Positions 19,427-29,011 of a stretch of DNA of 64,000 nt are shown here, piece by piece; the first letter of the stretch is position 1, and each line of letters starts with the position of its first letter. The notes below the pieces were generated by a model that worked only from the letters and a program-made list of their open reading frames with translations, had not been told where the DNA came from and ran no database searches. Source of the DNA: Chitinophagaceae bacterium (GTDB taxonomy: Bacteria > Bacteroidota > Bacteroidia > Chitinophagales > Chitinophagaceae); contig JAMLGU010000001.1 of assembly GCA_023957575.1 (NCBI GenBank), positions 1 to 64,000 of the forward strand, written 5' to 3'. The translations under genes and the position numbers were made by a program.

Positions 19427-21685
19427 TTAGGATTTGCGGTACAGACCCGCCTTTAATTTAGTGAGGGAAACTCCGGTAGCCGTTTTCAGGATTTCATCAA
19501 CTGAACGGGCTGAAAGTTTGAATTGTGAGCCTAACTCGGTTGCCTGTTTCCGGGTGAACTCTTCCGGCAGGGCTTCAAAGAATTTACGTTTGCTGTCGCC
19601 AGATTGGAAACTCATTACTTCATTCTGCTTTGGCAGATTGTTAAACATGAGCAGGCTGTGTTGCAGGTAAGTTTGTGCAATGGCAAGGGCTGTATTAAAA
19701 TCTTCATCGGTGCAAAATATGGTGTCGGTAACTTCTCCATTCTCAAACTTGCGAAGTGCTGAAAATATCATGCAAAGCCTGAACATGATTAAGCCTAAAC
19801 GGTACACAATGCCTGAAGCCTCCTCACTGGTGAAAATGGTTACTTCTGAAAGGATGCCCGAAAAGGTTGTGTTCAATACCTGCCATTGCTCGGGCTGCAA
19901 TTGCACTGCTGTTGGCGATTGTTCCAAAAAACCAATCATGTCTAACATTGATTGAGAAAGTGCATCAAAATGGTCATTGTAAACAATGGTGTGGCTTTGT
20001 GGTGAAGGGTCTTGCCAAACAATTTCATTTTTGAAAGCATAGAATAAGAAGCGGCTGAATAAGCCGTCTTCTGCTGATGCAATCAGCTTGGGGGCTTGTG
20101 CCGGAGTGCCTGACAAGGCAACGGCTAAACGTGGTTCATTGATTTCAATGTACTCGTTATTGGTTTTACGGGTAAGGGTAATTTTCTCATGATGGAAGGC
20201 AGCCCGCAGGGCTGGCGAATAGTCGCCCCAATCCTGCTTTTTTGCTCCGCTCATGGTGTCTGCTTCGGTTTCGCAAATGATGCCTTGCCCATCGTTGTTT
20301 TGCAGGTGTTCTATCATCCTTGAATGTGAGCTGTCGGCAGGAATGAAAACGATTTTAAAAGGTGGCTCATTTGGTTTTTCGGGTGCAGGTTCTCCTTTCT
20401 TTCTATTGCGTTGGAGTTCCTTATAATCTACCATTTCAGCATCATGCCTTTTTTGTGCTTCTCTGCTTGCACCTAATACCTGTTGATGGTATTTGTCAGC
20501 CAATCGTTTTGCGTTCTTTAAAACGCCTTTGCCGCTTGCGGCAGGGGCAATGATGAAAGTGTATAGGTGCGGATGCACTCTTTCCTGAAAATAGATGCCT
20601 GTTACTTTGGGAAGGCAACCGCTAATGATTGCAATTGCACCAGTAAAGAATACATCTCTTTTCCGCTTGTCGGAAAACGCTATTGAGCCTTCTTTGAGAA
20701 TATGTGGCAAAGCCTCATAGACTTCATCAGGAATGGTTGGAGTGGTCTTTAAAAAGTCTTCTAATGGGTCTTCATCTTCTGGCTGTGTATTGGGCTTTGC
20801 AGGTTGCAACTTTGCAGACTTTGCAAACTTTGCAAATTCTCCTGCATGGTGGGTGTAGGCACTTTTTACCGCTTCAAGAATTTCTCTTTCAGGTAGGTCA
20901 AAATATTGTGAACATAAAAGTTCAGTATCGGGTTGCGATATACCAACTCTGTTGCAATTAGAAGCAAGCAGATAAATATAATTGTTCCTGTTTCCATCGG
21001 TGTATGATGCTTTTTGATTAGTGAATTGAATTTGTTGATTGAATAAAAAAGTAACATCAAGGTTTTCGGGTTCTGCCTGTTCAACTTGCTTTAAAGCAGG
21101 CATAGCCAAAGTTTGTTGCTCCTGAATGATTTGCGGCAAAGTCACAATGAATTTTTCATTTTGAATTGTCCGGTAAGCTTCGGGGTGGTAACTCATAAAG
21201 CAAAGCCTTGTAACATCTTTGCAGCTCGGATCTGCCTTTAATTCTGTGGCATCTTCGTAATGCTTCTGCACCTGCAAATAAGCTGTATCGTGGTGTTCTA
21301 AGCATGTATTGACTTCAATAAACACTTTCAAACCGTTGCCACTTGGACTAATAAAGCATAAGAAGGTATAAGGGATTTCGGAAATGACTTTGAAAGCTGT
21401 ACTGAGTTGTTCAGGTGTTAGCTTATCAAAATCTAAATGCACAAAGCCGCTGTACATTTCAAGAAACGGCATTTGCCTTTTCTCTGTAAATACTGCCGAT
21501 GGAGTGAATGCCAACAGTTGCTTTTTCTTATTAGCAGCTTCTTCCGTTTTACCTTGCTCCAGTAAAGTCCTGATTTCTTCAACCTCTGCTTTGTATTTGC
21601 CGGAAGCAATATCATTACCGATAAGCAGCAATGATTTCTTTTCCACCGGCACGGTGAAGTTTTTAAATATCGTACATGATGCCAT
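19427..21685 (-). CDS. BT4734-like/DUF3987 protein of integrative elements
   Basis: The 752-residue protein combines an N-terminal BT4734-like (VirE-type) domain (about 1-190, with YSGFVHLDFDKL and FLCFISPSGNGLKVFIEV) and a large DUF3987 domain (about 320-700). The latter has the P-loop-like segment FIIAPAASGKGVLKNAK and ICETEADTMSGAKKQDWGDY. Such proteins are standard in Bacteroidota integrative and mobilisable elements beside the integrase and are thought to work in element replication as primase/helicase-like factors. The N-terminal fold resembles archaeo-eukaryotic primases, which is family knowledge. It lies 30 bp downstream of an HTH gene on the same strand. Confidence 0.9.
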   Translation of the reverse strand: MASCTIFKNFTVPVEKKSLLLIGNDIASGKYKAEVEEIRTLLEQGKTEEAANKKKQLLAFTPSAVFTEKRQMPFLEMYSGFVHLDFDKLTPEQLSTAFKVISEIPYTFLCFISPSGNGLKVFIEVNTCLEHHDTAYLQVQKHYEDATELKADPSCKDVTRLCFMSYHPEAYRTIQNEKFIVTLPQIIQEQQTLAMPALKQVEQAEPENLDVTFLFNQQIQFTNQKASYTDGNRNNYIYLLASNCNRVGISQPDTELLCSQYFDLPEREILEAVKSAYTHHAGEFAKFAKSAKLQPAKPNTQPEDEDPLEDFLKTTPTIPDEVYEALPHILKEGSIAFSDKRKRDVFFTGAIAIISGCLPKVTGIYFQERVHPHLYTFIIAPAASGKGVLKNAKRLADKYHQQVLGASREAQKRHDAEMVDYKELQRNRKKGEPAPEKPNEPPFKIVFIPADSSHSRMIEHLQNNDGQGIICETEADTMSGAKKQDWGDYSPALRAAFHHEKITLTRKTNNEYIEINEPRLAVALSGTPAQAPKLIASAEDGLFSRFLFYAFKNEIVWQDPSPQSHTIVYNDHFDALSQSMLDMIGFLEQSPTAVQLQPEQWQVLNTTFSGILSEVTIFTSEEASGIVYRLGLIMFRLCMIFSALRKFENGEVTDTIFCTDEDFNTALAIAQTYLQHSLLMFNNLPKQNEVMSFQSGDSKRKFFEALPEEFTRKQATELGSQFKLSARSVDEILKTATGVSLTKLKAGLYRKS

Positions 21686-21715
21686 TGTTCTGTTCTTTCA
21701 GTTAATTAAAAAATT

Positions 21716-22021
21716 CTACTTGCTGCGTTTGTTGCGGATTACATAGTCAGTTGCCAACTGGTCAATTTCATTGGCTGCTGATTGGCGGTTACGTTGTAAC
21801 CAGTTATCCAACTCCTCCCGTTTGAAGTAGAGTTTTTTACCCTGCGGACAGAAATGGGGAATGTGCTTTGTACTTGTGAGCTTGTACAAATGCGAAGGGC
21901 TTACATCTAAATATTTGCAAGCCTCATTAAAGTTCAGGACTGTTTTTTGTAACAGGTTTTGCTCATTCAGCTTGTTAGCAATCTCGGTGAGCTTGTCTAA
22001 GATTAATTCTTCGTGTGCCAT
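21716..22021 (-). CDS. Excisionase-like helix-turn-helix protein
   Basis: Starting at ATG 22021 (MAHEELILDKLTEI), the 101-residue protein has a short coiled N-terminus and a MerR/HTH_17-type winged helix: LNFNEACKYLDVSPSHLYKL followed by KKLYFKREELDNWLQRN. Proteins of this type bind bent DNA as recombination directionality factors or as element regulators. The frame extends to 22075 but without a start matching the family. It precedes the DUF3987 gene and probably shares its transcript. Confidence 0.88.
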   Translation of the reverse strand: MAHEELILDKLTEIANKLNEQNLLQKTVLNFNEACKYLDVSPSHLYKLTSTKHIPHFCPQGKKLYFKREELDNWLQRNRQSAANEIDQLATDYVIRNKRSK

Positions 22022-22126
22022 CTTTTTTAAATTTTTAGAATGATGACACAAACCTCCTAATTGCTTGAGGGGCAAAGGTTAAGGGGTTAACCCCTTACTC
22101 AGATTACTGAATAATCTTAATGTTTT

Positions 22127-23194
22127 TTATTGCAGTTGTTTAAAAATCTTGTCAATGTTTGCACTCTCCTTTGGCTCAATTTTATTCTTTGAACTACTTG
22201 CCGAAAGGTTGTTTGCTTTTATCAATGTGTCCTTCTTTGAATAGAAGATTTTTGATTTCTCAATGTTTGCCAATGTGAGGCTATTGAAGTAAGGTATAAA
22301 CTTATCAATGCAGTAACGGAAGTGTTTTGTTTCGCAGCCTAATTGAATTTTAACTGCACCCGGCAAAATACTTTTTGCTGTGAAGGCTTTTATAAGTTCA
22401 TCTGCACTGGTAACATCTTCATTGAGTAGGTCTATCTGATAGCACAATTGATTTACTACTGTGGTCAGCTTTGCAACATCATCTTTGAAACCAAAGCAAA
22501 CAGTATCTTGATTACCGTTGTACGCTGTATTGCCTTCTGCATCTGCATCAGGCTTACCGATATACTCTATTTGTTGAACTGCGGAAATTGGTAATTCCAA
22601 ATCCAACAGGTAAAAATCATCCAGTGAAATGGTTTGCTGAAGTTGGGCTTCAAATGCTTTCTGAATGCTGAAATAAAGAAGTATCAATGAATGTTTGAGG
22701 TAATGCAAAGTAAAGTGAATATGATTGCTGCTTTCATCGGGTGTTGTAGTAAAGCCTTGTTCCTGTAATTCTGCTGCTGTTTGTTTCGCTAATACCTTTA
22801 TATCGTTCAGCACTTTGCCAACCTGATATTGTATGTCAACTAAATCGGTAAGGGTTGTTGCTTGCAGCAACACAGTATTGTAAACACGAAGTGTTTCTGC
22901 TGTTATTACGAAGTAATAAAAATTCGTTACCGGGTCTTTGTAGCTCGGTAAATCTGTTTTGTATTGTAAGGGCTGCAACGGGTCTTTAGTATTGGAAGCA
23001 ACAGGCAGAAGTTTTTGAAGAGTGGGAAAGTCAGTAAGTAATGCTGTGATTTGCTTATGCAAATCGGCATTTGTTACTGGTGAAGCTGCCTTTGCAGCTT
23101 TTACCAATTCAACAAACCGCCTTGTGTTGGTAGTGTCAAGTTTCCACGGCTTTAAAGCACCGTGCATTATACTATCTAATATTTTTACTTCCAT
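22127..23194 (-). CDS. Element protein of unknown function
   Basis: The 355-residue product is not one I recognise. It is soluble, rich in helices, with no signal peptide or membrane segment, and begins MEVKILDSIMHGALKPWKL. A region around 155-170 (SNHIHFTLHYLKHSLILLYF) is the most hydrophobic. The tail is Ser/Lys-rich. It lies directly behind the integrase gene, with two bases between the integrase stop and its ATG, so the two must be co-expressed. In other Bacteroidota elements a gene of this size commonly sits between integrase and the excisionase-like gene, so an accessory recombination role is possible but unproven. Confidence 0.75.
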   Translation of the reverse strand: MEVKILDSIMHGALKPWKLDTTNTRRFVELVKAAKAASPVTNADLHKQITALLTDFPTLQKLLPVASNTKDPLQPLQYKTDLPSYKDPVTNFYYFVITAETLRVYNTVLLQATTLTDLVDIQYQVGKVLNDIKVLAKQTAAELQEQGFTTTPDESSNHIHFTLHYLKHSLILLYFSIQKAFEAQLQQTISLDDFYLLDLELPISAVQQIEYIGKPDADAEGNTAYNGNQDTVCFGFKDDVAKLTTVVNQLCYQIDLLNEDVTSADELIKAFTAKSILPGAVKIQLGCETKHFRYCIDKFIPYFNSLTLANIEKSKIFYSKKDTLIKANNLSASSSKNKIEPKESANIDKIFKQLQ

Positions 23195-23196
23195 TT

Positions 23197-24303
23197 CTAT
23201 AATTCAATTTTGATGCGGTTTGCAGCTTCTTTCTTTTTATGGTCAATCACCTTTGCATAAATCTCTGTTGTCTTCAAATGCTTATGCCCTAACATTTTTG
23301 ATACTGTGTAAATATCACTACCTAAAGTTAGTTGTAATGTTGCGTAGGTGTGCCTTGCACAGTGAAAGGTGATTGTTTTACTAATACCTGCCCTCATAGC
23401 CCATTGCTGCAACCGCAGGTTGTGCCAGGCTGAATATTTCAATCCAATAAAAACTCTTTCTTTTGGTTCGCCTCTTTCACCTAACAAACCGAAAGCCTGT
23501 TCAGAAATTGGCAATGTTTCAGAACCTTTAGTTTTCTTTTGGGTGTAGCGGATGTAATGCCCGATTTCATCAGAGTATTGCAACTCCATCCATGTGAGTT
23601 TTTGAATATCACTCCAACGTAATCCAGTTAAGGCACTGAACAAGAAAGCTGTTTTCATTTGCGGTATATCGCATTCAGCTTTAGCCATTGCCTGTAATTC
23701 TTCTTGTGTCAAAAATTCTCTTTCCGGTTCACCTGCTTTTATTCCTTCAATTGTATCGCATGGGTTACGCTGTATGATTTCATCTTTCAAAGCCTGTTTT
23801 AATGCTGCCCTTACTTTATTAAAATATGAGCTTTGCGAATTTTGAGAAAGTGGCTGATTGGCTGGTGTACGAGCTTGCTTCATCAGGTATTCTTTGAAAC
23901 CTTCTAACCATGCCTTATCTACTTGGGTAAATGTTATATCATGCTTGCAATACTTCTTCATGTGTTTAAGCACACTATCCCAATTGCCATAATTACCCTG
24001 ACTGTCTTTCCTTTCTTCCATGAGGTATTCAAAGTAGCGAAGGAAACTGCCTTTCATTTTGCCCTGGTTTTGGAAACCATAAATGCCATTCTGCAACTCC
24101 AAATGTCTTTTGCTTCTGATGGCTTCTGCAAGTGCTAAGTTCTTACGGTTTTCTTCCTTCTGTTCCTTTGTCAGTTTACCTTTCTCCGGGTCGGGATAAA
24201 GCGTAAGCTGCAAGTGTTCATAGTTGCGTTTGCCTTGATGGTAGTAGTCAAGGTATAAAGTGATTTTATCACCTTTGAGCCGTTGGCGAAGTGTTACTTT
24301 CAT
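23197..24303 (-). CDS. Tyrosine recombinase (integrase) of the element
   Basis: The 368-residue protein has an N-terminal arm-binding region (1-75), a SAM-like core-binding domain (about 85-185) and a catalytic domain. The catalytic set is complete: Arg229 (TGLRWSDIQ), Lys near 256, His314 and Arg317 (HCARHTY), His340 (LGHKHL) and nucleophile Tyr349 (TTEIYAKV). It belongs to the Bacteroidota integrases of conjugative and mobilisable elements. Its position next to the mnmE 3' end suggests that this end is the attachment site. It follows the HTH/zinc protein gene by eight bases. Confidence 0.95.
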   Translation of the reverse strand: MKVTLRQRLKGDKITLYLDYYHQGKRNYEHLQLTLYPDPEKGKLTKEQKEENRKNLALAEAIRSKRHLELQNGIYGFQNQGKMKGSFLRYFEYLMEERKDSQGNYGNWDSVLKHMKKYCKHDITFTQVDKAWLEGFKEYLMKQARTPANQPLSQNSQSSYFNKVRAALKQALKDEIIQRNPCDTIEGIKAGEPEREFLTQEELQAMAKAECDIPQMKTAFLFSALTGLRWSDIQKLTWMELQYSDEIGHYIRYTQKKTKGSETLPISEQAFGLLGERGEPKERVFIGLKYSAWHNLRLQQWAMRAGISKTITFHCARHTYATLQLTLGSDIYTVSKMLGHKHLKTTEIYAKVIDHKKKEAANRIKIEL

Positions 24304-24311
24304 TCTTTCAG

Positions 24312-24659
24312 TTATTTAAAAAGATTATTGATTTCTGTTCTTGGAATGATAGTACGACTGCCCAACTTGGAAGCCTTCAAACTCCCTGCATCAATCAGCC
24401 TGTAAATGGTCCATCTGCTGGCTCCGATTAACTGGCAAGTTTCCTGTACACTCAGGAACTCCTTTTGGGTTACAATGGGGTTGAATGGCTTTAGCTCATT
24501 CTCTTTTTGAATGACAGCTTCAACCTTTGCATTTCTTGCCCTCTGTTTGTAGGCTGCACTTGCACAGCGATGGGAACAACATTTAGTTGTTGTCTTCTGT
24601 GCAATGAATTTTTTGCCGCAGTGCTGGCAGGTTTTTTCTACTTTAATCGTACTACTCAT
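24312..24659 (-). CDS. Small protein with zinc-finger-like and HTH_17 parts
   Basis: The 115-residue protein starts with a putative zinc finger, CQHCGKKF then KCCSHRCASAAYKQRAR (about 11-44), like the MerR/DUF2116-type fingers, and continues with an HTH_17 domain: LSVQETCQLIGASRWTIYRL and KASKLGSRTIIPRTEI. This combination is common at the integrase end of Bacteroidota elements. It is likely an excisionase or a regulator of integrase. It is the outermost gene of the element on this side and is transcribed inward. Confidence 0.88.
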   Translation of the reverse strand: MSSTIKVEKTCQHCGKKFIAQKTTTKCCSHRCASAAYKQRARNAKVEAVIQKENELKPFNPIVTQKEFLSVQETCQLIGASRWTIYRLIDAGSLKASKLGSRTIIPRTEINNLFK

Positions 24660-24878: not shown

Positions 24879-26273
24879 TTACTTTCCGATACAAAACTTC
24901 CCAAATATCGTTCCCAGTATATCTCTGTCCACTTCCACCTGCCCCGTTATCTCACCGAGGTAGTGCAGCGCACGGCGAATGTCAATGGTGAGCAGGTCAC
25001 CGCTCAAATTGCGACCAAGACCGGTCTTTACAGCTAACAGGCTTTCTTTTATTTTTTGCAGAGCAGCATGATGGCGAGCATTGGTAACGATGGTGGCTTC
25101 GGTTTGTACAGTACCGCCAATTGCTTTGTCATATAAAAACTGTTTAAGTTCTTCTATTCCGTAACCGGTTTTGGCATCAATTGCCGGCACTGGCGGAGTG
25201 GCAAGAATTTCCAGCTCCTCTCTTTTTTTGTACCAAGGATGATATTTGTTATAAACGGTGATGGTTTTCTCGTCAAACTCATTTAGCCATTTGAATTTTT
25301 CTTCTCCTTCGTCATTAAGCAGGTCCACCACATGCAGAATAATGTCTGCCTTAGCTGCATTGGCTTTGCTACGCTCAATTCCTTTATTTTCAATCACATC
25401 TGTACTGTGCTCCCTGATGCCGGCAGTATCAATCAGCCTGAACAGAACTCCATTGATATTCAGTGTCTCCTCAATGGTGTCGCGTGTGGTGCCGGCAATA
25501 TCGCTCACAATCGCTCTCTCTTCGTTTAGCAGCGCATTCAGCAGGGTTGACTTTCCGGCATTGGGTTTCCCGATGATGGCTACACTCACACCGTTTTTTA
25601 TCACATTTCCCAACTTGAAGGATGCAATCAGTTCCTCTGTCTTTTTGTAAATCCGGCTTACAAGTTCCCTTAGTTGGGTTCGGTCGGCAAACTCCACATC
25701 CTCATCGCTGAAGTCCAGTTCTAATTCTATCAGTGCCGCAAAATTCACCAACTCTTCCCTCAGCACTTTCAGGTCAGCTGAAAAACCACCCCGCAACTGG
25801 TTTAGTGCGGTTTGTTGTGCTGCTTTGGTGTTAGCGGCTATTAAGTCGGCCACTGCTTCTGCCTGTGTCAGGTCAAGTTTCCCATTCAGAAAAGCGCGTT
25901 GGGTAAATTCGCCCGGTTTTGCCAATCTTGCGCCTGCCTCGATGCACACCTCAATGATTCTGCCCAAAATATAGGGCGACCCATGTCCGCTTATTTCTAC
26001 TACGTCCTCGCCTGTAAAACTTCTTGGCCCCCTGAAAATGGCGGCTACCACTTCGTCAACAGCTTCTTGTTCGCCTCCTTTTGAGTTACGCGAGATTATA
26101 ACTCCAAAATGGCAGGTGTGCCCGGGTTGGTCAGAAAGTTTTTTGCCTTTGAAAATGGTATCGGCAATTTTCAGCGCTTTTTCGCCACTCAACCTGATTA
26201 CGCCAATAGCGCCCACTCCGGGAGGAGTAGCCAAAGCCACAATGGTATCCTGCCAGTCTGATAAATGATTCAT
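24879..26273 (-). CDS. mnmE: tRNA modification GTPase MnmE
   Basis: With the ATG at 26273 (MNHLSDWQDTIVALATPPG) the protein has 464 residues; a TTG two codons upstream is less likely. It forms 5-carboxymethylaminomethyluridine-type modifications at the wobble base with MnmG. The N-terminal folate-binding domain (1-120), helical domain and inserted G domain are in order: GKPNAGKSTLLN (G1), DTAG (G3) and the C-terminal FCIGK with its catalytic-region Cys. The last codons coincide with the element boundary, so the 3' end may have been rebuilt by integration, yet the protein end is intact. It is transcribed toward the element. Confidence 0.97.
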   Translation of the reverse strand: MNHLSDWQDTIVALATPPGVGAIGVIRLSGEKALKIADTIFKGKKLSDQPGHTCHFGVIISRNSKGGEQEAVDEVVAAIFRGPRSFTGEDVVEISGHGSPYILGRIIEVCIEAGARLAKPGEFTQRAFLNGKLDLTQAEAVADLIAANTKAAQQTALNQLRGGFSADLKVLREELVNFAALIELELDFSDEDVEFADRTQLRELVSRIYKKTEELIASFKLGNVIKNGVSVAIIGKPNAGKSTLLNALLNEERAIVSDIAGTTRDTIEETLNINGVLFRLIDTAGIREHSTDVIENKGIERSKANAAKADIILHVVDLLNDEGEEKFKWLNEFDEKTITVYNKYHPWYKKREELEILATPPVPAIDAKTGYGIEELKQFLYDKAIGGTVQTEATIVTNARHHAALQKIKESLLAVKTGLGRNLSGDLLTIDIRRALHYLGEITGQVEVDRDILGTIFGKFCIGK

Positions 26274-26463
26274 AATCAAAGTTACAACCGAAACAGGAGT
26301 TTAGAGCTATAAAATTCCTGTTAAAGCCAATGGTAGGACGACCGAAACTCGACAAAGAAATTAACAAAAAATTAAATTTTCTTACCTTTGAGTAAAACTG
26401 ACAAAAGACTGATTACAAGATTAATGATCTCAATAAAAAAAATAAATCTCGATATTATTATTG

Positions 26464-27698
26464 CAGGGCAGACGCATTAAAAATATGTAGTAATCCACAG
26501 GTGTGGAAATAAAGTTGCTTGTAAATCAAATTGAATACCCGGACTTGCAGTTCCAAAAAGCTATGACAGCCATTTTGGAACATTTTGGTCAGTTACCAGA
26601 TCCGCGAACTAAAGAGCATAAAATCATTCATAAGCTCTATGACATTGTATTTATTACTATAGCGGCGGTTATATGTGGGGCAGAAGACTGGTATGATATT
26701 GAGGACTATGGGGAAGCTAACCAACAATGGCTTAGCCGTTTTCTGGAACTACCCGGTGGTCTGCCGTCACACGATACATACAACCGTGTGTTTTCGCTAT
26801 TTGATCCGCAGGCTTTGCAGCAGTGTTTTGTGGGTTGGGTACAAAGCATTGCCCATATAAGTGAAGGGCAAGTAGTGAGTATTGATGGCAAACAGCTACG
26901 CCACAGCGGCGAGCAGGGAGGTAAAAGCATTATTCACATGGTAAGCGCCTGGAGCAATGCCAATAATATGGTGTTGGGGCGACTAAAAGTAAACGATAAG
27001 AGTAATGAGATTACGGCTATTCCTGCTTTATTGGAAGTATTGATGCTAAAAGGATGCTGGATTACTATTGATGCCATGGGTTGTCAAATCGAAATAGCCA
27101 AAAAGATCAGGGAAGTGGGGGCTGAATATATCCTCGCAGTAAAAGATAATCAAAAGCACCTGAATGATGACATTAAGGAAGCTTTTGCACAGACGCCGCA
27201 AACGGCAAGTCATACGCAATTAAATGTAGATCATGGTCGCATAGAAAAACGTATCTGCCGTATTATAACAGATATGGACTGGATTTGCAGTAAAGATCAA
27301 TGGGAAGGGCTTCAAACCATTATAGAAATAATAAGTGAGCGAACCCATAAAGCGACCGGAGAAAAAGAAAAGCAGGTTCGCCATTATATAAGCAGTATAA
27401 AGGCGCCGGCTGAAGCCTTCAATACTGCTATAAGGGAACATTGGGGCATAGAGAACAAACTGCATTGGGTTTTAGATGTTTGTTTTGGAGAAGATATGAG
27501 TACTAAAAGGGCAGGAACTGCTGCCGAGAATTTTTCTTTTGTTAGCAAGGTAGCCCTTAACCTGCTCAATCAATCAGAAGAGAGAAAGGGTGGCAAAAAG
27601 CTTAGCATCAAACGAAAAAGAAAAAAGGCAGACAGAGATAAGGATTATTTGTTATCGCTTTTGGCTAAAGCCGGATAACTTTTAATGCGTCTGCCCTG
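26464..27698 (+). mobile_element. Complete ISAs1-family insertion sequence
   Basis: The 1235-bp element is bounded by perfect 19-bp inverted repeats, CAGGGCAGACGCATTAAAA at 26464-26482 and TTTTAATGCGTCTGCCCTG at 27680-27698. It is flanked by the 10-bp target duplication ATTATTATTG at 26454-26463 and 27699-27708. The single transposase gene fills it. A short hairpin TCCACA-GG-TGTGGA (26494-26507) covers the GTG start codon of the transposase and may limit translation from outside transcripts. Perfect ends and duplication indicate recent insertion and probable mobility. Confidence 0.97.
26503..27678 (+). CDS. ISAs1-family DDE transposase
   Basis: The 391-residue protein begins at GTG 26503. 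The N-terminal DDE_Tnp_1-associated part has GQLPDPRTKEHKIIHKLYDI, typical of the ISAs1/H-repeat group. Catalytic residues are visible in VSIDGKQLRHS (first Asp), WITIDAMGCQ (second Asp) and REHWGIENKLHWVLDV (Glu). The basic C-terminus (KLSIKRKRKKADRDKDYLL) ends just before the right inverted repeat. Nothing is broken, so the protein should be functional. Confidence 0.96.
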   Translation: MEIKLLVNQIEYPDLQFQKAMTAILEHFGQLPDPRTKEHKIIHKLYDIVFITIAAVICGAEDWYDIEDYGEANQQWLSRFLELPGGLPSHDTYNRVFSLFDPQALQQCFVGWVQSIAHISEGQVVSIDGKQLRHSGEQGGKSIIHMVSAWSNANNMVLGRLKVNDKSNEITAIPALLEVLMLKGCWITIDAMGCQIEIAKKIREVGAEYILAVKDNQKHLNDDIKEAFAQTPQTASHTQLNVDHGRIEKRICRIITDMDWICSKDQWEGLQTIIEIISERTHKATGEKEKQVRHYISSIKAPAEAFNTAIREHWGIENKLHWVLDVCFGEDMSTKRAGTAAENFSFVSKVALNLLNQSEERKGGKKLSIKRKRKKADRDKDYLLSLLAKAG

Positions 27699-27705
27699 AT
27701 TATTA

Positions 27706-27735
27706 TTGCAGTTGCAAAAATATTCCATACTTTTG
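27706..27735 (+). promoter_or_regulatory. Bacteroidota promoter abutting the IS
   Basis: TTG at 27706-27708, a 19-base spacer and TACTTTTG at 27728-27735 match the Bacteroidota -33/-7 consensus exactly. The TTG is the last three bases of the IS target duplication. Transcription would start near 27742 and lead into the abi gene with a leader of about 85 bases containing a CCAGCC/GGCTGG stem (27748-27753, 27781-27786). Confidence 0.65.
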
Positions 27736-27826
27736 CACTTAATAATACCAGCCACGCTTCCCACTTGAACAGCGCACCCGGGCTGGTTTTCGATTTTTAT
27801 AGGGGTAACTTAATTTCAACAACGCT

Positions 27827-28720
27827 ATGAAGTATAATAAGTTACCTATTACCATACCTGAACAGGTAGAAAAATTAAAAGAACGAGGGCTGAAATTTGA
27901 CAATGAGGCAAAAGCTCAAAACTACCTCTCCAATATTAGTTATTACCGATTAAGTGCTTACACACACCCTTTTCAAGACAATTCTCATGACAACCACCCT
28001 TTTAATATTGATGTTACTTTTGAGCAAATTATAGAACTTTACGTTTTTGACAGAAAACTACGTCTATTGATTTTCGATGAAATTGAAAAAATTGAAATCG
28101 CATTGAGAACGCAAATCATTTACCATTTTGCTTTAAATAACGGAAGTCATTGGCAACTTAAGCCTGAACTCTATAGAGACCCAATGAGATTTGCTAACCA
28201 TTTAGACAGCTTACAAAAGGAAATAGATAGAAGCAACGAAACATTTATTGACCATTACAAAAATAAATACACCAATCCGACAGAACCACCAAGTTGGATG
28301 AGTTTAGAAGTAAGTAGTATGGGTTTGCTATCAAAGATTTTTCAAAACTTAAAAAAGAGCCCAGAAAAATTAGCGGTAACATCTCATTTTGGACTTAAAG
28401 ATGTTTCAGTTATTGAAAATTGGATACTTTGCTTTAGCACATTAAGAAACATTTGTGCTCATCACGGACGAGTTTGGAATAGACGACTTACTCAGATAAA
28501 ACTCCCTACTCATCCGAACCACACTTTTTTGAAAAATAAATCAATTTATACAAACAAACTTTATGCGACATTATCTTGCATTGAGTATATTTTAAAACAA
28601 ATAAGTATAGGCTCAACATTTAGTGGACGACTTAAGGAATTAATGACAACCTGCCCGTTAGCGCAGACAAAAGAAATGGGCTTCCCAAAAAACTGGTTAG
28701 GTGAAGAACTATGGAAATGA
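27827..28720 (+). CDS. Abi_2 (AbiD/AbiF-like) abortive infection protein
   Basis: The 297-residue protein has the Abi_2 pattern: ITIPEQVEKLKERGLKF, YLSNISYYRLSAYTHPFQ, then DRKLRLLIFDEIEKIEIALR. Near residue 210 is RNICAHHGRVWNRRL, whose R-x4-H is the HEPN ribonuclease motif. Family knowledge: AbiD/F proteins stop phage growth at the cost of the cell, probably through RNA cleavage. The DNA is visibly richer in A and T than its neighbours, suggesting transfer. It stands alone between the IS and a tetracycline-type exporter, and is the second defence function in this window outside the element. Confidence 0.92.
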   Translation: MKYNKLPITIPEQVEKLKERGLKFDNEAKAQNYLSNISYYRLSAYTHPFQDNSHDNHPFNIDVTFEQIIELYVFDRKLRLLIFDEIEKIEIALRTQIIYHFALNNGSHWQLKPELYRDPMRFANHLDSLQKEIDRSNETFIDHYKNKYTNPTEPPSWMSLEVSSMGLLSKIFQNLKKSPEKLAVTSHFGLKDVSVIENWILCFSTLRNICAHHGRVWNRRLTQIKLPTHPNHTFLKNKSIYTNKLYATLSCIEYILKQISIGSTFSGRLKELMTTCPLAQTKEMGFPKNWLGEELWK

Positions 28721-28786
28721 CCACCGGCTATAACAACTAAGGCTTCATTGGGCATTTGTGCAAAGTTCAACATTCGTTCTTCCCTG

Positions 28787-28810
28787 CCCGACTGAAGTCA
28801 TTCAGGCGGG
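28787..28810. repeat. Hairpin downstream of abi
   Basis: CCCGACTGAA (28787-28796) pairs with TTCAGGCGGG (28801-28810) around GTCA with one mismatch. Outside it GTTCAA (28775-28780) and TTGAAC (28813-28818) are also complementary, and the similar stretches CATTTGTGCAAAG and CATTTGTGCTAAG flank the block. There is no T run, so it is not a usual terminator; a dispersed palindromic repeat is more likely. Confidence 0.55.
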
Positions 28811-29011
28811 GATTGAACATTTGTGCTAAGAACTCCCGCCTTCGGCAATACCCAAAACGATAAGAGATAATAGAAGATGTCGTAAATATAAAATGTCTTT
28901 CAGGGATTCAGAAATATTTTCAAAGTAGTGATAAAATTTTTATAACAAGCATTTATCATAATTCTCAATACAGAAAGGCTATTTTTCCTCATCTTTGCTG
29001 CTTCTTTTTGG

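What the first reader, a model, noticed from the sequence alone, without database searches (positions are those of the whole stretch)
26454..27735. IS target duplication rebuilds the -33 box of a promoter
The right-hand copy of the 10-bp duplication ends in TTG, exactly 19 bases before TACTTTTG. The IS therefore landed on the -33 element, but duplication restored it, leaving an apparently complete promoter that now drives the abi gene from the IS edge.
Basis: seen in the sequence. Interest (0 to 1): 0.5.

Follow-up and report, generated by a model that had tools for sequence, protein, structure and literature searches.

The report
Insertion element beside antitoxin-RNA promoter
A jumping DNA element landed at the upstream edge of a bacterial promoter without breaking it, and that promoter most likely makes the RNA antidote of a phage-defence toxin as well as the toxin itself, a known kind of system caught in a tight spot.

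Summary
In detail: an ISAs1-family element (26464-27698) with 10-bp duplications, the right copy ending in TTG exactly 19 bases before TACTTTTG. Six near-identical copies in this genome all have 10-bp duplications. The promoter reading is partly supported. Of 68 distinct AbiF leader rows, 37 have TANNTTTG just before the conserved leader; 23 of the 37 have TTG at 19 or 20, about 1.9 expected. IS-free relatives L008 and L011 show the same TTG-N19-box. Genome-wide, however, TTG at 17-23 is no commoner than before control words, and 3 of the 6 closest relatives lack it. 'Duplication restored it' is automatic: everything right of the insertion is the old sequence. So it most likely drives an antitoxin RNA, with AbiF by read-through: a type III toxin-antitoxin whose promoter survived an IS at its -33 edge. 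Known kind; no transcription data were available.

The parts
26326..26463 (+). left part of the abi unit (homology to IS-free relatives L007-L010 begins about here), cut off from the rest by the IS; holds a second TANNTTTG box at 26383-26390
26454..26463 (+). left copy of the 10-bp target duplication ATTATTATTG; no TANNTTTG follows it inside the IS
26464..27698 (+). ISAs1-family insertion sequence, 1235 bp, 19-bp perfect inverted repeats at the ends
26503..27678 (+). transposase, 391 aa, same direction as abiF
   Evidence: NF033564 E 7.3e-116
27699..27708 (+). right copy of the target duplication, contiguous with the native promoter
27706..27708 (+). TTG, probable -33 element, 19 bases before the -7 box
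27728..27735 (+). TACTTTTG, -7 box of the Bacteroidota primary sigma factor; predicted start of transcription at about 27740
27741..27798 (+). AbiF leader RNA (probable antitoxin); outer helix 27747-27753 with 27781-27787, inner helix 27755-27758 with 27771-27774, then a U-rich tail
27827..28720 (+). abiF toxin gene (Abi_2, 297 aa), HEPN motif RNICAH at residues 207-212
28721..28734 (+). CCACCGGCTATAAC, probable right end of the mobile abi unit

Best explanation
The locus is a type III (RNA-antitoxin) AbiF module carried on a mobile unit. A native promoter (TTG 27706-27708, N19, TACTTTTG 27728-27735) starts transcription near 27740 and first makes a short structured leader RNA, which would bind and restrain the AbiF ribonuclease; read-through past the U-rich tail makes abiF mRNA. 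An ISAs1-family element inserted just upstream so that its 10-bp duplication ends on the TTG. Because duplication keeps the target on both sides, the promoter on the right is unchanged from its IS-free state; only the sequence upstream of the target was replaced by IS sequence. Shown: IS, duplication, spacing, leader conservation and covariation, intact abiF under purifying selection, same promoter layout in relatives. Inferred: transcription start, antitoxin action, and that the promoter still works with the IS in place.
For: IS and duplication. TANNTTTG enriched upstream of genes here: 87 seen, mean 30 in shuffles. First count: 28 of 54 distinct leader rows have the box, all 4-5 bases before the leader; 15 of 28 have TTG at 19 or 20. 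Recount with every place and nine more leaders: 37 of 68 distinct rows have the box and 23 of 37 have TTG at 17-23, each at 19 (11) or 20 (12), one of them also at 22; about 1.9 expected from the 2.5% per spacing; in the nine leaders not used before, 6 of 7 with the box. L008 and L011 carry TTG-N19-box without IS. Leader: on 43 distinct rows 93.9% of cells paired against 82.8% in shuffles, 46 double-change cells against 14.4, 0 of 500 shuffles reach either; one strong copy in the genome, 79.8 bits, next best 24.2. Rfam RF03085 is above cut-off in the genomes of L015 and L033, at the places where the leader lies (L015; L033: with a model built without L033). AbiF: Abi_2 E 1.9e-58, PADLOC AbiD, PDB 8vz6 E 9.9e-55, dN/dS 0.04-0.08 against L007-L010 and RNICAH present. 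No other + strand TANNTTTG between 26383 and 27728. AbiF with an upstream RNA antitoxin is established in C. difficile (PMC12373285: abstract, passages and first part of the discussion seen) and reviewed with PbAbiF 8VZ6 (PMC12737573: passages).
Against: No transcription data. TTG at 17-23 before TANNTTTG is not enriched genome-wide (28 of 156, 17.9%, against 8-22% at control words; 13 of 87 against 17% in shuffles). 3 of the 6 closest IS-free relatives lack the TTG, and 2 of 6 (L010, L018) have a decayed box. 31 of 68 distinct leader rows have no exact box at the expected place. The leader's folding energy is not better than shuffles (z 0.13) and RF03085 does not hit the window leader. Leader rows are related by descent, so they are not independent. 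No empty-site strain of the same species was seen.
Confidence: 0.78

Rival explanations
1. One reading: the IS hit the -33 box, the duplication rebuilt it, and the IS edge now carries a promoter for abi.
For: Geometry exact; TTG at 19-20 conserved in many AbiF leaders.
Against: Promoter is native and present in IS-free relatives; the first product is the leader RNA; nothing from the IS is needed.
Confidence: 0.12
2. The TTG is a chance match; the promoter depends on TACTTTTG alone, and the IS inserted into neutral AT-rich DNA upstream.
For: No TTG enrichment genome-wide; L007 and L009 keep the box without TTG, as do 12 other box-bearing rows; [quoted passage not shown] johnsoniae (PMC7366714, passages).
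Against: TTG at 19-20 in 23 of 37 box-bearing AbiF leaders, about 1.9 expected. The recount made me lower these odds from 0.25.
Confidence: 0.17
3. Read-through from the transposase gene or a non-consensus promoter in the IS now drives leader and abiF.
For: Same direction; transposase stop only 20 bases before the IS end; only a weak terminator-like match at 27660-27675.
Against: No TANNTTTG in the IS on that strand.
Confidence: 0.1
4. A conserved small protein overlaps promoter and leader and was split by the IS.
For: The joined empty site gives a 54-codon frame from an ATG to a stop that overlaps the abiF start; similar frames in L007 and L008, and open frames in L009-L011.
Against: Over the 75 bases before the leader, pairwise differences by codon position are 80/122/124, with no excess at third positions, and changed codons mostly alter the amino acid in all 15 pairs of six rows. 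The frames of L009 and L011 end elsewhere.
Confidence: 0.03

Closest known systems
AbiF-RCd22 of Clostridioides difficile (PMC12373285)
   Same: Abi_2 HEPN protein downstream of a small structured RNA with one shared promoter at the RNA start; R-x4-H catalytic motif (RNQCAH there, RNICAH here)
   Different: RCd22 has two abiF motifs and a mapped terminator; here one motif, a TANNTTTG promoter, no experiment, and an IS at the promoter edge
PbAbiF-AbiFr, PDB 8VZ6 (Prevotellaceae)
   Same: Homologous Abi protein (E 9.9e-55); one RNA per protein as described in PMC12737573 (passages)
Rfam RF03085 abiF RNA
   Same: Hits the leaders of L015 and L033, of which L015 is a row of the window leader's alignment and L033 is found by its model
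   Different: Does not reach E 1 on the window stretch; over its cut-off in 2 of 16 genomes searched, 14 of which carry an AbiF leader in my calls
ISAs1-family insertion sequences
   Same: NF033564 match, terminal inverted repeats; 10-bp duplications also in 11 of 14 related copies examined in three other genomes
   Different: Nothing unusual; six near-identical copies here, and only partial, diverged matches in 2 of 38 other relatives searched

Membership tests
ISAs1-family insertion sequence | ISAs1-type transposase | tested here: met
   NF033564 386.7 bits, cut-off 70
ISAs1-family insertion sequence | terminal inverted repeats and a short target duplication | tested here: met
   19-bp repeats, 10-bp duplication in 6 of 6 copies
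AbiF/AbiD (Abi_2) protein | Abi_2 domain over most of the protein | tested here: met
   PF07751 198.2 bits, cut-off 25.6, residues 32-218 of 297
AbiF/AbiD (Abi_2) protein | HEPN R-x4-H catalytic motif | tested here: met
   RNICAH at 207-212
Type III AbiF toxin-antitoxin | conserved structured RNA directly upstream of the toxin gene | tested here: met
Type III AbiF toxin-antitoxin | RNA belongs to the Rfam abiF family | tested here: inconclusive
   RF03085 fails on the window but hits homologous leaders in L015 and L033
Type III AbiF toxin-antitoxin | toxicity and neutralisation by the RNA | not testable with these tools
   needs experiment
Bacteroidota primary-sigma promoter | -7 box TANNTTTG | tested here: met
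   27728-27735; box at the matching distance in 37 of 68 distinct leader rows
Bacteroidota primary-sigma promoter | -33 TTTG or TTG at about 19-20 spacing | tested here: inconclusive
   TTG present at 19; frequent in AbiF leaders (23 of 37), not enriched genome-wide; the fuller TTTG of Bacteroides is absent here
Bacteroidota primary-sigma promoter | transcription start about 5 bases after the box | not testable with these tools
   predicted 27740 from F. psychrophilum numbering (PMC9723704, passages)

The most novel reading that the evidence does not exclude
The insertion point is a survivor's mark: because this promoter makes the antidote RNA for a toxin, insertions that weaken it would be lost, so the surviving IS copy stops at its upstream edge; and this particular IS may settle right behind active promoters in this genome (3 of 6 copies have their right end facing a TANNTTTG box 19, 21 or 31 bases beyond the duplication; P about 3e-4 for a window chosen after seeing the data). 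Against it: 0 of 14 examined copies of related elements show such a box within 60 bases, and since toxin and antitoxin share the promoter a broken promoter might silence both.
Probability: 0.13. Interest if true: 0.5.

Novelty: new member of a known kind. Interest (0 to 1): 0.3.

Why it matters
The IS event itself is ordinary. What is useful is that the finding leads to an AbiF leader RNA shared by many Bacteroidota, related to the RNA partners from which Cas13 guides are thought to derive (as told in PMC12373285 and PMC12737573), whose promoter layout is fixed (box 4-5 bases before the RNA, TTG at 19-20 in most) and which the present Rfam model missed in 12 of 14 leader-bearing genomes searched. 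A natural allele with an IS flush against that promoter is a ready test of how much upstream sequence the antitoxin promoter needs.

Tried and rejected
Overlapping small protein across promoter and leader: not supported by codon-position counts. IS-borne promoter: no TANNTTTG in the IS on the + strand. Rfam scan of 26200-29000: no match up to E 1. Targeting of promoters by ISAs1 elements in general: 0 of 14 related copies (two further copies, L168 and L169, were single in their set and their ends were not determined). Folding energy of the window leader alone: uninformative, z 0.13. My first statistic on the TTG suggested plain chance; the comparison of leaders changed that, and both are reported. 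Sigma-70 scan: 3 matches against 3.1 in shuffles, none near the leader. Terminal inverted repeat of the abi unit in the window: weak, 17 of 500 shuffles score as high. Empty acquisition site: tblastn found no mnmE within the 1.5-kb flanks of 20 MFS loci (the window's own included, whose flank does not reach mnmE either), nor in 16 abi loci. Regular expressions for leaders missed most (in one search they seeded 5 of 23), and the iterated nhmmer profile replaced them. Of its 64 places, 13 were left out of alignment A1: L066, L018, both L069, L032, L029, L038, L059, L017, L095, L096, L060 and the second L067 copy, mostly duplicates or near copies of rows kept. The count used 56 rows (2 duplicates) and left out L060, L073, L053, second copies and the leaders found only; one search recounted with all 64 places and nine (L053, seen by eye, is in neither).

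Full report
The observation. The sequence shows an insertion sequence at 26464-27698 with perfect 19-bp inverted repeats and a duplicated ATTATTATTG on both sides. The right copy ends in TTG at 27706-27708; nineteen bases later TACTTTTG occupies 27728-27735. The transposase belongs to the ISAs1 family. The genome has six full-length, nearly identical copies, each with a 10-bp duplication; two have one changed base in the left repeat. Of 38 other relatives searched, only two congeners have partial, diverged matches. So the insertion is real and, by the near identity of the copies, probably recent.

What lies downstream. The gene at 27827-28720 is an Abi_2 protein, called AbiD by PADLOC, homologous to the solved chain 8vz6, which a review names PbAbiF with its RNA (PMC12737573, passages). 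Its HEPN motif RNICAH is present and dN/dS against L007-L010 is 0.04-0.08. A scan of species genomes gave 42 loci with relatives, up to 92% identical in protein and from different orders of Bacteroidota, while 4 of 16 congeners have versions of 35-39% and the other 12 none: the unit probably moves horizontally.

The leader RNA. Between promoter and gene the close relatives share a block that begins AATAATACC and ends in a U-rich tail. A profile found it in 64 places of the held loci; 51 were aligned. The two helices covary: on 43 distinct rows 93.9% of cells pair against 82.8% in shuffles, 46 double-change cells against 14.4, 0 of 500 shuffles as high, and sliding the partners destroys the signal. 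The folding energy of the window copy alone is not remarkable. The genome has one strong copy; the next match scores 24.2 bits against 79.8. RF03085, the Rfam abiF RNA, does not reach E 1 in the window stretch, but it is above its cut-off in 2 of 16 genomes searched, at the leaders of L015 (a row of the alignment) and L033 (found at E 3e-4 by the model built without it). So the window leader is most likely a diverged abiF RNA. In C. difficile such an RNA is co-transcribed with abiF from one promoter, binds the protein and neutralises it (PMC12373285: abstract, passages and first part of the discussion seen). The same role here is inference.

The promoter. In 464 kb of this genome TANNTTTG occurs 87 times upstream of genes against a mean of 30 in shuffles, so the -7 box is a real signal here. 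In a first count 28 of 54 distinct leader rows have the box, always 4 or 5 bases before the leader, and 15 of these have TTG at 17-23, each at 19 or 20. A recount with all 64 places and nine leaders found later gives 37 of 68 with the box and 23 of 37 with TTG, 11 at 19 and 12 at 20 (one also at 22); among the nine later leaders, 6 of 7 with the box. From one expects about 2.5% per spacing, i.e. about 1.9 of 37 at these two spacings. The rows include the window and are related, so this is not 23 independent cases. Against this, TTG at 17-23 is not enriched over all 156 sites of the genome (28; control words 8-22%; 7 at 19 and 9 at 20 against 3.9 each), and of the six closest IS-free relatives only L008, L010 and L011 have it, L010 with a decayed box. 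[quoted passage not shown] johnsoniae, as told in PMC7366714 (passages). I conclude that the TTG is probably a working but dispensable -33 element.

What the IS did. In IS-free relatives the sequence runs unbroken through the target. The right side of the insertion is therefore the original promoter; a duplication always does this, so nothing had to be rebuilt. The target could have begun up to seven bases further right without losing the TTG, so the insertion is near but not at the last harmless position. What was moved away is the upstream block from about 26326, shared with L007-L010, while L011 and L018 align only from 26422 and 26438 on; it includes a second box at 26383-26390 that now points into the IS. 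No consensus box lies in the IS on that strand. Read-through from the transposase gene cannot be excluded.

Does the IS prefer such places? Three of six copies have the right end 19, 21 or 31 bases before a box, against 2.4% of intergenic positions for a box at 15-35 (P about 3e-4, window chosen after the fact), but none of 14 examined copies of related elements does. I treat this as unproven.

Verdict. Observation confirmed; interpretation partly supported. A type III AbiF module, an ordinary ISAs1 insertion, and a promoter that survived it: a new member of a known kind. After the recount I raised confidence in the explanation slightly (0.76 to 0.78) and lowered the chance-TTG rival (0.25 to 0.17). 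Whether this very case is in print was not settled; the paper searches made showed listings none of whose titles names it.

Noticed in passing
window 26326-26343 and 28721-28734; L200; L203; L007: The abi unit seems to be a cassette: its left end GCCAATGGTAGGACGACC occurs without mismatch in a congener (G008) before a different gene (in the same call the reversed control pattern also gave matches with up to 2 mismatches), and about 90 bases from the right-end motif of L007 to its contig end closely match that congener's unit by eye. The fold-back right flank looks integron-attC-like, but the core sites do not fit the consensus as I recall it.
   Followed up: partly
L205 and L207 (own genome, C1 about 335 kb): An AbiEi/AbiEii pair in the same genome is followed by the same 15-base right-end motif CCACTGGCTATAACA; no matching left end was found.
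   Followed up: partly
window 26383-26390: A second TANNTTTG on the + strand in the upstream block of the unit, intact in L008 and decayed in L007, L009 and L010; it now points into the IS.
   Followed up: partly
L019 4886-6013: About 1.1 kb is inserted inside the abi gene of this relative, whose leader and promoter box are present.
   Followed up: no
L063 1510-1576: A leader-like RNA with a TATCTTTG box in a genome of the same order (G058), where no abi relative was found.
   Followed up: partly
L068 826-883 and 1406-1463; L069 836-893 and 1406-1463: Two similar leaders about 570-580 bases apart upstream of the abi match.
   Followed up: no
window 19427-24659: A tyrosine recombinase with Arm and SAM-like domains, a helix-turn-helix gene and further genes lie on the other side of mnmE: probably a separate integrative element.
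   Followed up: no
own genome, 156 TANNTTTG sites: TTG 12 bases before the box is over-represented (13 seen, 3.9 expected, single-test P 1.7e-4 among 1472 tests); the window has TTG at 13.
   Followed up: no
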